A stretch of 58,587 bases of DNA, from positions 1 through 58,587 of the forward strand of contig NZ_JAURYQ010000028.1 of the NCBI RefSeq assembly GCF_030653815.1, written 5' to 3'. Within the stretch, counting starts at the first letter, position 1. Every line of letters starts with the position of its first letter. Below the pieces are notes generated by a model. The model worked only from the letters and a program-made list of their open reading frames with translations, was not told the origin of the DNA and did not search any database. This DNA comes from Rhodoferax sp. GTDB lineage: Bacteria > Pseudomonadota > Gammaproteobacteria > Burkholderiales > Burkholderiaceae_C. Positions 1-4,513 of the stretch are shown one piece after another. The position numbers and the translations under genes were made by a program.

Positions 1-1751
1 ACACCAGCCCAGCCACCGATACCTGATAGCACGCCAACGTATTGTTTACCTTTGTTACCGTAGGTGAATGCATTACCAATCACGCCAGAACCTACCTGGA
101 ATTTCCAAAGTTCTTTACCAGTTTTATCATCCACCGCTTTAAACCAACGATCTAACGTACCGTAGAACACTAAACCAGTGGCTGTTGTTAGTACACCACC
201 CCAAGCAGAGAACTTCTCTTTGTTGTACCATACTTTTTTGTTGGTCATTGGGTCATAAGCAGCAAAGCCACCCATCACACCGTCAGGACCCGGGAACATG
301 GTCAATGTCGCACCAACCCATGGTTGACCAGCAACGTATTTAGACTCAACCGGCTCGTAGGTCATACATACGTGGTTCAATGGTGAATACATTAAACCCG
401 TTTTTGGTGAGTATGCAGCTGGTTGTTGATCTTTAGTACCCAATGCAGCCGGGCAGATGCCTTTAGCATTGTAATCTTGGTGCGTTGACGCATTTGGTGT
501 TTTATTAGGCACACCGGTTTTTAAATCAACACCAGTGGCCCAGTTCACGAATGGGTGTACTTTTTCAGCAGCAACCAATTTACCTGTATCTGCTACCCAA
601 GTGTAAGCGAAACCGTTACGGTCATGGTGCCATGCATAAGTTTTGCCGCCTTTGTCGAACAAGATCACTTCATTCACACCATCGTAATCCCACTCATCAT
701 GTGGAGTCATTTGCATGCCCCAGCGAGCCATGCCAGTATCTACATCACGTGCAAATACAGACATAGACCATTTGTTATCGCCTGGACGTACATCCGGATT
801 CCAAACAGAAGGGTTACCAATTCCGTAGAACACTAAGTTTGTACGGGCATCATACGGAAACCAGCCCCACACAGAACCACCACCATGTTGCCAGCCATCT
901 TTAACCGCCTGTGGTTTTAACCAGGTACGTGTACCTAGTTCTTTTTCGCCAATTTTCAATTGGTCATGAGGTAACGGTTTAAATGAACCGCCAATTTTGT
1001 TACCGCCGTTTACGTCTTGGTAAACTGATAATGCGCTGTACTCAGGTGTATCTTTATTAAAACCTTCGCCGATTAGCACTTCAGCATCCGGGCCTGTTGA
1101 ATAAGCTTTCCATGCCAATGAGCCATCTTTGATGAAGTATGCTGCAATAAAGCAACGTACACCGAACTCAGCTCCTGAACAACCTGTCAGCACTTTATCT
1201 TTAATGACGTGTGGTGCGTTAGTGTTAGTAGCGCCGACTTTTGGGTCTGTATTTGAAACAGACCAAACCTTAGCGCCTGTTTTAGCGTCTAAAGCCACCA
1301 AGTGACCGTCATTTTGTTGCAAGAAAATTTTTCCATCGCCAAAACCCATACCGCGACTTACGTTATCGCAACATAAAACAGCTTGTACTGATGGATCTTG
1401 TTTTGGGAAATATGACCAAACGATTTTTTGATTGTCGTTTAAATCAAGTGCGTATACGTTGTTTGGGAATGCTGTATGTACATACATCATGTTACCAACA
1501 ACTACTGGTGAACCTTCGTGACCACGGTTTACACCTGTTGCGAATGTCCACGCTGCTTTAAGGTTTTTGATGTTGCCTTTATTTACTTGCGCTAGCTTGC
1601 TGTAGCCTTGGTTGTCGTGCTGACCACGTGGGTGCAACCAATTGTTTGAATCTTTCATTGCGGTTTCTTGGTCTGCCGCTGCTGATGCAAGCATTGGCAT
1701 TGCCAAGGCTGCGCTTACCGCTAGTCCTAATACTCGTTTTTTTGTAAACAT
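1..1751 (-). CDS. xoxF: XoxF-type lanthanide-dependent methanol dehydrogenase (3' end outside window)
   Basis: Periplasmic PQQ-dependent alcohol dehydrogenase that oxidises methanol to formaldehyde or formate and passes electrons to a c-type cytochrome. The visible 583 residues begin at an ATG with GGAG seven bases upstream, and a signal peptide ends near residue 24. Seen: the vicinal cysteine pair Cys127-Cys128 of quinoprotein alcohol dehydrogenases, the GNPSVWN metal/PQQ segment, and DEWDYDG with catalytic Asp355. The second Asp, two residues on (Asp357), is the diagnostic lanthanide ligand; calcium-type MxaF has Ala there. The catalytic Asp lies later than usual, apparently because of extra residues around 245-285. 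Composition suggests Methylophilaceae (clade XoxF4), which is inference. No cytochrome (xoxG) or xoxJ gene is visible; they could lie beyond position 1. The C-terminal few dozen residues are missing. Confidence 0.95.
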   Translation of the reverse strand, partial: MFTKKRVLGLAVSAALAMPMLASAAADQETAMKDSNNWLHPRGQHDNQGYSKLAQVNKGNIKNLKAAWTFATGVNRGHEGSPVVVGNMMYVHTAFPNNVYALDLNDNQKIVWSYFPKQDPSVQAVLCCDNVSRGMGFGDGKIFLQQNDGHLVALDAKTGAKVWSVSNTDPKVGATNTNAPHVIKDKVLTGCSGAEFGVRCFIAAYFIKDGSLAWKAYSTGPDAEVLIGEGFNKDTPEYSALSVYQDVNGGNKIGGSFKPLPHDQLKIGEKELGTRTWLKPQAVKDGWQHGGGSVWGWFPYDARTNLVFYGIGNPSVWNPDVRPGDNKWSMSVFARDVDTGMARWGMQMTPHDEWDYDGVNEVILFDKGGKTYAWHHDRNGFAYTWVADTGKLVAAEKVHPFVNWATGVDLKTGVPNKTPNASTHQDYNAKGICPAALGTKDQQPAAYSPKTGLMYSPLNHVCMTYEPVESKYVAGQPWVGATLTMFPGPDGVMGGFAAYDPMTNKKVWYNKEKFSAWGGVLTTATGLVFYGTLDRWFKAVDDKTGKELWKFQVGSGVIGNAFTYGNKGKQYVGVLSGIGGWAG

Positions 1752-2118
1752 AGTTATCTCCAAAGATAATATAAAAGAGTGAAGTAAATTAACCTCAATT
1801 TGCTCACATAAAACTGGCACTAGGATGACAGGCAATTGATTCAACCACGTAATAAATGCATACAAATATGTACGCTTTTTAAATTTAATTGTTTCAATTT
1901 GTAAACGAATGTAACTGTATATAAAAAAACCGCCTTTTAGGCCATCCAGTTTTTTAATTCATGCTGGTCCACTTAATAAATTAAGCGTCCATTGAAAATT
2001 TTGGTAATATTCTCAACTTGGGTTCTCCTAGTATCCATTAAGCGTAATTTTCTGAACGAAATCACTTACTCAGAAAAAATTATGTATCACCAATATGCTG
2101 ACTGGATAGGAGATGGCT
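1752..2118. other. Divergent intergenic region between xoxF and the MocR-type regulator
   Basis: AT-rich 367-base gap with no plausible gene. It must hold the promoters of both divergent genes. A degenerate inverted repeat, GC-TACA...TGTA-GC, lies around 1858-1875 and loosely resembles the GTATAC-centred palindromes found downstream. I see no riboswitch-like fold and no clear sigma-70 hexamer pair with normal spacing. Confidence 0.5.
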
Positions 2119-3945: not shown

Positions 3946-3985
3946 ACCGCTATCGTAATTTTTTTAACAAAAAATGTTACAAAAA

Positions 3986-4513
3986 TTACTCTTTACCAAT
4001 TTGATAAACCTCATAACTAGCCTCTACAATCTTGCCTGTAGTCGCATCAACTTCAACTTTAATTTCTTCTCCATCAGCTTCAAGTATATCGAATTCATAA
4101 GAGGCTTTACCATCTGATTCAAGTTCATACTCTGTTTCAACCACAGTACCCGGGTGCGCCGCTAATGCGGTTGCTTTAGCTTCAGCCTCAGTCACTTTAG
4201 CCAGAGCGATGAATCTAGCATCATCGGCTTTAACTTCTTCTTCAATCTCAGTCACTTTGCCTGTTTTAGCATCACACTCAATATCCCATGATTTACCGTC
4301 GGCTGATTCAATATCAAATTCATAAATTCCTGTTTTTTTCTCAGATTTGAATTCAACTTTGACAATCTTGCCGTCGTGTTTACTAAGTGCTGCTTTAACG
4401 CATTTACCCAAACTGTCATAAGACTTAGGCTTGATTGTGTCATGCCCAGCCACTGCTGTGTTTGCAAAAAATGCTGCTGCTATTAGGGTAGCGCCCATTG
4501 TTAAACGAAACAT
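3986..4513 (-). CDS. Secreted double-PepSY protein, lanpepsy-like (putative lanthanide-binding)
   Basis: A 175-residue precursor with a signal peptide (1-22, AVA/G cleavage) and two PepSY domains (about 34-92 and 103-170) rich in Asp and Glu. Each PepSY domain ends in a D-A/T-T-G-K turn (DAKTGK, DATTGK). Two cysteines in the first repeat (GKCVK, IECDAK) could form a disulfide. This matches the architecture and size of lanpepsy, a periplasmic lanthanide-binding protein of Methylobacillus flagellatus with two PepSY domains. The closeness of a lanthanide methanol dehydrogenase strengthens that reading. Lanthanide binding itself is inferred; other PepSY proteins bind different ligands or inhibit peptidases. 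The ATG at 4513 has GGAG seven bases upstream; an in-frame TTG four codons earlier lies over that site and is rejected. Confidence 0.8.
   Translation of the reverse strand: MFRLTMGATLIAAAFFANTAVAGHDTIKPKSYDSLGKCVKAALSKHDGKIVKVEFKSEKKTGIYEFDIESADGKSWDIECDAKTGKVTEIEEEVKADDARFIALAKVTEAEAKATALAAHPGTVVETEYELESDGKASYEFDILEADGEEIKVEVDATTGKIVEASYEVYQIGKE

What the first reader, a model, noticed from the sequence alone, without database searches (positions are those of the whole stretch)
1..4513. Possible lanthanide-response locus: xoxF, MocR-type regulator and lanpepsy-like protein
Seen: a methanol dehydrogenase with the lanthanide Asp pair (Asp355/Asp357), a divergent MocR-type regulator, and a secreted acidic protein with two PepSY domains in under 5 kb. 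Known: lanpepsy of Methylobacillus flagellatus is a double-PepSY lanthanide-binding protein, and XoxF needs lanthanides. Inference: the MocR-type protein may be the switch that links lanthanide supply or methylotrophic state to these genes. I know of no MocR regulator assigned to a lanthanide response.
Basis: partly seen in the sequence, partly recalled or inferred. Interest (0 to 1): 0.8.

Follow-up and report, generated by a model that had tools for sequence, protein, structure and literature searches.

The report
Hidden RNA in lanthanide gene cluster
Between a regulator gene and the gene of a likely lanthanide-binding protein in a Methylotenera-type bacterium lies a conserved sequence predicted to make a folded RNA absent from the Rfam catalogue, which would likely pair with short hairpin loops in the messages of the neighbouring genes and tune them together.

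Summary
The three genes are real: xoxF (cut by the contig end, Asp355/Asp357 present), a divergent MocR regulator, and a double-PepSY protein 63% identical to the crystallised PepSY protein 9vy3. The DNA is Methylotenera (97% identical, colinear with a named MAG), joined, probably by misassembly at a tRNA-His, to a contig of another family. MocR-xoxF linkage is conserved (19 of the 30 best MocR loci in Methylophilaceae), so that part of the reading holds. Its fold covaries (16 of 26 pairs changed on both sides; 95.1% of cells paired; slid controls 40-50%). It has a sigma54-type promoter site (36 of 37 loci) and a palindromic upstream site (37 of 37) shared by lanpepsy (24 of 25). A covariance model finds it in 36 of 187 Methylophilaceae; 37 of its 38 hits lie beside xoxF, MocR or lanpepsy. 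Its loop ACUAGGAC (44 of 46 copies) is complementary to UCCUAGU in xoxF leaders: 25 of 27 beside the RNA, 0 of 48 examined in genomes without it; mocR and lanpepsy leaders mostly carry CCUAG. Best reading: a trans-acting small RNA coordinating xoxF, mocR and lanpepsy. Transcription, pairing and any lanthanide response are untested.

The parts
3..1751 (-). xoxF (lanthanide-type methanol dehydrogenase), C-terminus cut by the contig end
1818..1825 (-). predicted RNA-pairing site UCCUAGUG in the xoxF leader, about 74 nt upstream of the ATG, with only a 3-bp CUG/CAG stem around it here
   Evidence: (L026)
1944..1971 (+). candidate MocR operator: direct repeat ATCCAG (1944-1949) and GGTCCA (1966-1971), starts 22 bp apart
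2019..2037 (+). predicted mocR leader hairpin UGGGU-UCUCCUAGU-AUCCA with the pairing site in its loop
2113..3603 (+). mocR (GntR/aminotransferase-type regulator; PLP lysine K333 present)
3642..3674 (.). two palindromic upstream activator-like sites GGTTGTATACAACC (3642-3655) and GGTTGCTTATAACC (3661-3674)
3773..3788 (+). sigma54-type promoter site TGGCACGTTTGTAGCA (GG-N10-GC)
3797..3884 (+). conserved structured core of the predicted RNA; internal loop ACTAGGAC at 3813-3820
3908..3945 (+). predicted 17-bp terminator hairpin with a T-rich 3' arm; may also serve lanpepsy from the other side (inference)
   Evidence: the strict hairpin-plus-T5 test did not flag the window copy
3986..4513 (-). lanpepsy-like double-PepSY protein with a signal-peptide-like start
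4557..4570 (-). predicted lanpepsy leader hairpin CAUG-GCCUAG-CAUG
4644..4657 (.). palindromic upstream site of lanpepsy, the same type as at 3642
4937..4998 (+). copy of the tRNA-His 3' end and terminator (87%); last point of colinearity with Methylotenera L026
7154..7230 (-). tRNA-His; probable join between Methylotenera DNA (left) and the host contig (right)

Best explanation
Between mocR and lanpepsy lies a conserved sequence with a covarying RNA fold, predicted to be transcribed from a sigma54-type promoter as a small RNA whose ACUAGGAC loop likely pairs with UCCUAGU- or CCUAG-bearing predicted hairpin loops in the leaders of xoxF, mocR and lanpepsy and so would tune these genes as one set. 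Shown by sequence: the covarying fold, the conserved loop, the promoter-type and palindromic sites, the conserved position, and the matching sites in the leaders. Inferred: transcription, base pairing, effect on translation or stability (direction not determined; the sites lie about 45-125 nt upstream of the start codons, away from the ribosome-binding site), and any link to lanthanide supply. The full-length MocR is inferred to act at the DNA level on the xoxF-mocR promoters through the ATCCAG/GGTCCA direct repeat. An unidentified activator is inferred to bind the palindrome shared by the RNA gene and lanpepsy.
For: Fold: 13 first sequences, 97.0% of 337 cells paired, slid controls 41-55%; 35 distinct sequences, 95.1% of 802 cells, 16 of 26 pairs and 133 cells changed on both sides, 0 of 500 shuffles reach any of the five measures, slid controls 40-50% (the alignment is fitted to the model). 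RNA plus terminator folds at z -5.17, the core alone at -2.57. Distribution: 36 of 187 Methylophilaceae genomes with either model; 37 of 38 first-model hits have xoxF, MocR or lanpepsy in the held DNA. Sites: TGG(C/T)A-N8-GC in 36 of 37 loci (shuffled mean 0.035); palindrome GGYTN6ARCC in 37 of 37 before the RNA and 24 of 25 before lanpepsy (shuffled 0.145 and 0.055), 0 of 16 before xoxF. Pairing: ACTAGGAC kept in 44 of 46 copies, CACTAGGAC in 42. xoxF leaders with TCCTAGT: 25 of 27 beside the RNA, 11 of 29 other xoxF copies in RNA-bearing genomes, 0 of 48 (42 genomes) examined in genomes without the RNA. In 232.5 kb of 27 RNA loci the heptamer (either strand) occurs 72 times, 71 of them inside the RNA or the three 135-nt leaders; sense TCCTAG vs reversed CTAGGA: xoxF 25 vs 0 of 27, mocR 18 vs 1 of 26, lanpepsy 4 vs 0 of 20. 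CCTAG lies in predicted hairpin loops with changing stems, stem scores above shuffled flanks in all four leader groups. Eight further RNA copies in one genus, with no xoxF, MocR or lanpepsy match nearby, keep CACTAGGAC.
Against: No expression data. In none of 12 tests does the whole-length RNA-leader duplex energy beat 95% of shuffled leaders (best: 20 of 200 shuffles as good). Predicted accessibility is mixed: the RNA loop is partly paired in the window and in L030, and several xoxF and mocR sites are mostly paired. Lanpepsy leaders match mostly over 5-6 nt (TCCTAG in 4 of 20). 18 of 29 other xoxF copies lack the site, and one of the 11 that have it (L199) may be adjacent across a contig break. 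Of the 27 adjacent leaders, L171 has no CCTAG and L263 only CCTAG. Two RNAs beside lanpepsy (L252, L257) have lost the loop sequence. The eight unlinked copies have neither the sigma54 site nor the palindrome (0 of 8). In the first alignment, 65 of 500 shuffles reach the count of pairs changed on both sides. The RNA was not found in 151 of 187 genomes, at least 111 of which have xoxF. The motif was chosen on these same loci, and the sequences are related, so the counts are not probabilities.
Confidence: 0.66

Rival explanations
1. MocR is the regulator that matters: it binds the ATCCAG/GGTCCA direct repeat and links a metabolic signal (amine or PLP state) to divergent xoxF and mocR; the RNA is accessory.
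For: Divergent xoxF in 19 of the 30 best MocR loci. GGTCCA in 22 of 22 full-length-MocR spacers (15 beside the RNA, 7 without it), with ATCCAG 22-23 bp before it in 15; no box in 8 of 9 short-MocR spacers examined.
Against: The PLP lysine is absent in 4 of 31 close homologues and in 17 of 29 xoxF-linked MocRs aligned, including all 13 from genus code g272, 10 of which are shortened to 363-377 aa. RNA plus lanpepsy occur without MocR (L252, L256, L257). Nothing ties MocR to lanthanides.
Confidence: 0.4
2. TCCTAGT/ACTAGGA is a DNA operator of one transcription factor that happens to lie inside the RNA gene and the leaders; no RNA pairing.
For: The same heptamer occurs in the RNA gene and in the leaders; predicted duplex energies are not special.
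Against: Orientation is kept (sense TCCTAG 25 of 27, reversed 0 of 27 for xoxF). In the RNA the motif sits in the internal loop of a covarying fold and is kept in 8 of 8 unlinked copies that lack the sigma54 site and palindrome. Leader copies sit in predicted hairpin loops whose stems change.
Confidence: 0.2
3. The RNA titrates an RNA-binding protein of the CsrA/RsmA type through its GGA-bearing loop rather than pairing with mRNAs.
For: The conserved loop ends in AGGAC, resembling the GGA core of CsrA sites (recalled); sigma54-driven titrating RNAs such as CrcZ are known (recalled).
Against: Only one conserved loop GGA per RNA (by eye); it does not explain UCCUAGU in xoxF leaders beside the RNA and its absence in the 48 leaders examined from RNA-free genomes.
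Confidence: 0.12
4. The xoxF-MocR-lanpepsy block was horizontally acquired by the host genome on an island at tRNA-His, rather than being joined by misassembly.
For: GC step at tRNA-His and tRNA 3'-end repeat 4937-4998/7120-7181 around a RES/Xre segment; several genus relatives carry separate 50-bp tRNA-His 3'-end fragments.
Against: Window 1-4998 follows the Methylotenera chromosome at 97%, up to its own tRNA-His 3' end. The 77-bp tRNA-His is identical in Methylotenera versatilis 7 and within an 80-bp identity in two relatives of the host. A sequence like the relatives' 3' flank of tRNA-His appears at another contig end, C42:268-330 (81-88% over 65-69 bp). No other xoxF is found in the genome at E<=0.001.
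Confidence: 0.1

Closest known systems
sigma54-dependent trans-acting small RNAs (Qrr of Vibrio, GlmY/GlmZ; recalled)
   Same: Predicted sigma54 promoter with distant palindromic upstream sites, hairpin terminator in many copies, one conserved unpaired stretch complementary to several mRNA leaders, several copies in some genomes.
   Different: Different sequence and fold, no Rfam match at gathering score; tied to methanol dehydrogenase and lanpepsy; matching sites lie in predicted leader hairpin loops well upstream of the ribosome-binding site; the extra copies lack the sigma54 site.
MocR/PdxR family regulators (NF052282)
   Same: GntR plus aminotransferase-like domains, PLP lysine in the window copy, direct repeat of about two helical turns, divergent arrangement.
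   Different: Linked to xoxF; in genus code g272 without the PLP lysine and mostly shortened.
Lanpepsy (Hemmann et al. 2023, Methylobacillus flagellatus; known here through passages of PMC12482762 and PMC11845868, the original is not held)
   Same: Two PepSY domains, similar size, signal-peptide-like start, acidic; 63% identical to PDB 9vy3.
   Different: Metal binding of this copy is untested.
Known lanthanide-switch regulators MxbDM, MxcQE, MxaY/MxaB, PedS2R2 (PMC11845868, passages)
   Same: Control of lanthanide-dependent alcohol dehydrogenases.
   Different: They are two-component proteins; the passages read name no RNA regulator.

Membership tests
XoxF methanol dehydrogenase | PQQ alcohol dehydrogenase family and the lanthanide Asp pair | tested here: met
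   TIGR03075 616.4 bits; D355 and D357
Lanpepsy | two PepSY domains | tested here: met
   PF03413, two stretches
Lanpepsy | sequence relation to a crystallised PepSY protein and kept acidic positions | tested here: met
   93 of 147 identical, 28 of 34 acidic positions; that 9vy3 is lanpepsy itself is inferred from its molecule name
Lanpepsy | lanthanide binding | not testable with these tools
   needs purified protein
MocR/PdxR | GntR winged helix plus aminotransferase domain above the PdxR cut-off | tested here: met
   340.2 vs 320 bits
MocR/PdxR | PLP-binding lysine | tested here: met
   K333 in the window; absent in 17 of 29 xoxF-linked MocRs aligned
MocR/PdxR | direct-repeat operator in the divergent promoter | tested here: met
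   ATCCAG/GGTCCA, starts 22 bp apart in the window; binding untested
PdxR proper | control of vitamin B6 genes | not tested
   neighbours are xoxF and lanpepsy; the regulon was not searched
trans-acting small RNA | conserved covarying secondary structure | tested here: met
trans-acting small RNA | own promoter and terminator | tested here: inconclusive
   promoter-type site 36 of 37 linked loci, 0 of 8 unlinked copies; strict hairpin plus T5 terminator in 26 of 46 copies, the window's hairpin not flagged
trans-acting small RNA | no conserved reading frame | tested here: met
   longest ATG frame 0-50 aa with varying length among 46 copies, 2 aa in the window; frames were not aligned
trans-acting small RNA | transcription and pairing in the cell | not testable with these tools
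   no expression data held
Any Rfam 15 family | match at or above gathering score | tested here: not met
   only tRNA reaches it; best overlap with the RNA is 25.7 bits against a gathering score of 90

The most novel reading that the evidence does not exclude
An RNA layer of the lanthanide switch: a sigma54-driven small RNA family of Methylophilus and Methylotenera, encoded between mocR and lanpepsy and in extra unlinked copies, uses one conserved loop to pair with hairpin loops in the leaders of xoxF (also some distant xoxF copies), its neighbour regulator and the lanthanide-binding protein, so that enzyme, metal carrier and regulator are set together.
Probability: 0.6. Interest if true: 0.9.

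Novelty: new variant of a known kind. Interest (0 to 1): 0.8.

Why it matters
The lanthanide-switch regulators named in the review passages read are two-component proteins, and how Methylophilaceae switch is open: in M. flagellatus protein levels of two two-component systems did not change with La (PMC11845868, passage). A conserved RNA with complementary sites in xoxF, mocR and lanpepsy leaders gives a concrete, quickly testable candidate and a set of predicted target sites. Cultured carriers appear to exist: by equal contig lengths, Methylotenera versatilis 7, Methylophilus sp. QUAN and M. rhizosphaerae CBMB127 (inference).

Tried and rejected
Palindrome GGTTGTATACAACC as the MocR operator: set aside, because the site type lies upstream of the RNA and lanpepsy (37 of 37, 24 of 25) and not upstream of xoxF (0 of the 16 leaders tested, of 27). 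RNA as a small-protein gene: no frame of constant length. Known RNA: no Rfam family at gathering score. Duplex energies as proof of pairing: failed in 12 of 12 cases. sigma54 site for lanpepsy: 1 of 25 (shuffles: mean 0.29, at most 2). Viral contigs for the PepSY protein: nothing. Literature, papers holding the terms: lanpepsy 15, MocR+lanthanide 4, xoxF+GntR 5, xoxF+MocR 0, PdxR+MocR+binding motif 6, xoxF+sRNA 4, lanthanide+small RNA+methanol dehydrogenase 7 (6 listed), Methylophilaceae+noncoding RNA 5, xoxF+rpoN 3, Methylotenera+small RNA 6 (listings). Passages only were seen of PMC4109929, PMC3728764, PMC5320631, PMC12482762, PMC11845868, PMC8262872 and PMC12403871. Nothing in these listings and passages describes this RNA; the library lacks most subscription papers. 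The lanpepsy original (PMC9988556) is not held. Left out of the count of other xoxF copies: L192 (34 nt of leader only); L287 was seen in both and counted once; L295 was fetched but is the same gene as in L264. In one search the window itself was not scored (name mismatch); its near-identical L026 stands for it.
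Full report
Observation. All three genes are present as described. xoxF is incomplete because the contig begins inside it. The PepSY protein is 63% identical to the crystallised PepSY protein 9vy3 and keeps 28 of 34 acidic positions.

Where the DNA comes from. The window belongs to a genome of another, large family, whose 149 other sampled members lack this MocR at E<=1e-100. Window 1-4998 is 97% identical and colinear with Methylotenera sp. MAG contig NZ_JAUXOY010000014.1, which runs xoxF, MocR, lanpepsy, tRNA-His. 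GC rises from 0.39 to 0.54 at tRNA-His. The 77-bp tRNA-His is identical in Methylotenera versatilis 7 (L035), and an 80-bp stretch with it is identical in two genus relatives of the host. To its right, ppiD follows as in 11 of the genus loci held; a sequence like the relatives' other flank lies at the end of contig C42. I conclude that the contig is probably chimeric at tRNA-His; acquisition on an island is not excluded. The biology below concerns Methylotenera and its relatives.

The MocR gene. In 187 Methylophilaceae genomes, 57 have MocR at E<=1e-60 and 147 have xoxF at E<=1e-200. Of the 30 best MocR loci, 19 have divergent xoxF and 11 lanpepsy in the flank, and the 14 best all have xoxF. 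In 15 of 15 RNA-bearing loci with a full-length MocR, and in 7 of 7 loci without the RNA beside them, the xoxF-mocR spacer carries at least one GGTCCA box, with ATCCAG starting 22-23 bp before it in 11 and 4 of them; 8 of 9 loci with the short MocR have no box. Suvorova and Rodionov (PMC5320631, passages) report direct repeats as common in MocR operators; the words methanol and methylo- do not occur in its main text. The lysine that binds PLP is present in the window but absent in 17 of 29 xoxF-linked MocRs aligned. Among them are all 13 from genus code g272 (Methylophilus by contig-length matches): 10 are 363-377 aa long and three (L261, L268, L269) are full length.

The RNA. Comparing the mocR-lanpepsy spacer between loci showed a block conserved beyond the genes. 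Thirteen sequences gave one fold with 97.0% of cells paired against 41-55% when partners are slid; there, 65 of 500 shuffles reach the number of pairs changed on both sides. The covariance model R1 found it in 36 of 187 Methylophilaceae, 38 hits in three genera. In most g272 genomes the central helix is replaced completely while CUAUCACUAGGACC and GGGGUAGAC stay. With 35 distinct sequences, 16 of 26 pairs change on both sides and 95.1% of 802 cells pair. 37 of 38 hits have xoxF, MocR or lanpepsy in the held DNA; the exception lies on a 3.9-kb contig. A second model found the same 36 genomes and eight extra, weaker copies in g272 (E 1e-5 to 7e-5); near these no xoxF, MocR or lanpepsy is matched, all keep CACTAGGAC, and none has the sigma54 site or the palindrome. 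No Rfam family matches at its gathering score.

Control sites. TGG(C/T)A-N8-GC, the sigma54 pattern, stands 23-27 nt before the model start in 36 of 37 linked loci against 0.035 expected from shuffles. The palindrome GGYTN6ARCC stands before the RNA in 37 of 37 and before lanpepsy in 24 of 25, but before xoxF in 0 of 16 tested. RNA and lanpepsy are therefore likely driven by one unidentified activator.

Targets. The RNA's conserved loop is complementary to UCCUAGU. That heptamer is in 25 of 27 xoxF leaders beside the RNA, in 11 of 29 leaders of other xoxF copies in RNA-bearing genomes (one of these may be adjacent across a contig break), and in 0 of 48 leaders examined from 42 genomes without the RNA. 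mocR leaders carry CCTAG within 135 nt in 26 of 26 RNA-bearing loci and in 0 of 7 xoxF-MocR loci without the RNA beside them; one of those 7 has it at -261 (one of the 7, L038, belongs to the same MAG as RNA-bearing L030). Lanpepsy leaders carry it in 20 of 25. In 232.5 kb, 71 of 72 occurrences of the heptamer lie in the RNA or these leaders, and in the leaders almost always in the sense orientation. The sites sit in predicted hairpin loops whose stems differ between species, for example GGCG-UCCUAG-CGCC, CAUG-GCCUAG-CAUG and UGCCA-AUCCUAGUGC-UGGCA; stem scores exceed shuffled flanks in all four groups, though related sequences make this no probability, and in the window's own xoxF leader the stem is only 3 bp.

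Results against. Duplex energies do not beat 95% of shuffles in any of 12 tests, and predicted accessibility is mixed. Lanpepsy matches are short (TCCTAG in 4 of 20). Two RNAs lost the loop (L252, L257). 18 of 29 other xoxF copies lack the site. In 151 of 187 genomes no RNA was found.

Verdict. I commit to a trans-acting, probably sigma54-dependent small RNA that pairs with leader loops of xoxF, mocR and lanpepsy. That the RNA is a real conserved structured gene I hold at about 0.95; pairing with the leaders at about 0.7; a role in the lanthanide response at about 0.5.

Noticed in passing
window 7154-7230: Probable chimeric join between Methylotenera DNA and the host contig at a tRNA-His shared by both lineages; a sequence like the host's own 3' flank lies at C42:268-330.
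   Followed up: partly
window 4999-7119: Segment with a RES/Xre toxin-antitoxin pair (5213-6315) between tRNA-His 3'-end repeats; looks like a small island remnant in the Methylotenera tRNA-His; no integrase noticed among its frames.
   Followed up: partly
L315-L322: Eight second copies of the RNA in genus code g272, away from xoxF, MocR and lanpepsy, without the sigma54 site and palindrome; six of eight carry another upstream motif (GGGA..TCCCATA-like, loose pattern).
   Followed up: partly
L251, L254, L259, L260, L262-L265, L267, L270: xoxF-linked MocR proteins of 363-377 aa without the PLP lysine: a MocR that seems to be losing its sensor domain.
   Followed up: partly
L072, 261 nt upstream of mocR: Methylovorus mays mocR leader carries GGCAA-UCCUAGU-UUGCC, a perfect hairpin with the pairing heptamer, although neither model found the RNA in that genus.
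   Followed up: no
L175, L179, L181, L183-L186, L188-L190: A second MocR group (about 52-55% identical) in Methylophilaceae that is not beside xoxF in the held flanks.
   Followed up: no
L252 and L257: RNA copies beside lanpepsy without MocR that have lost ACTAGGAC while keeping the fold, the sigma54 site and the palindrome.
   Followed up: no
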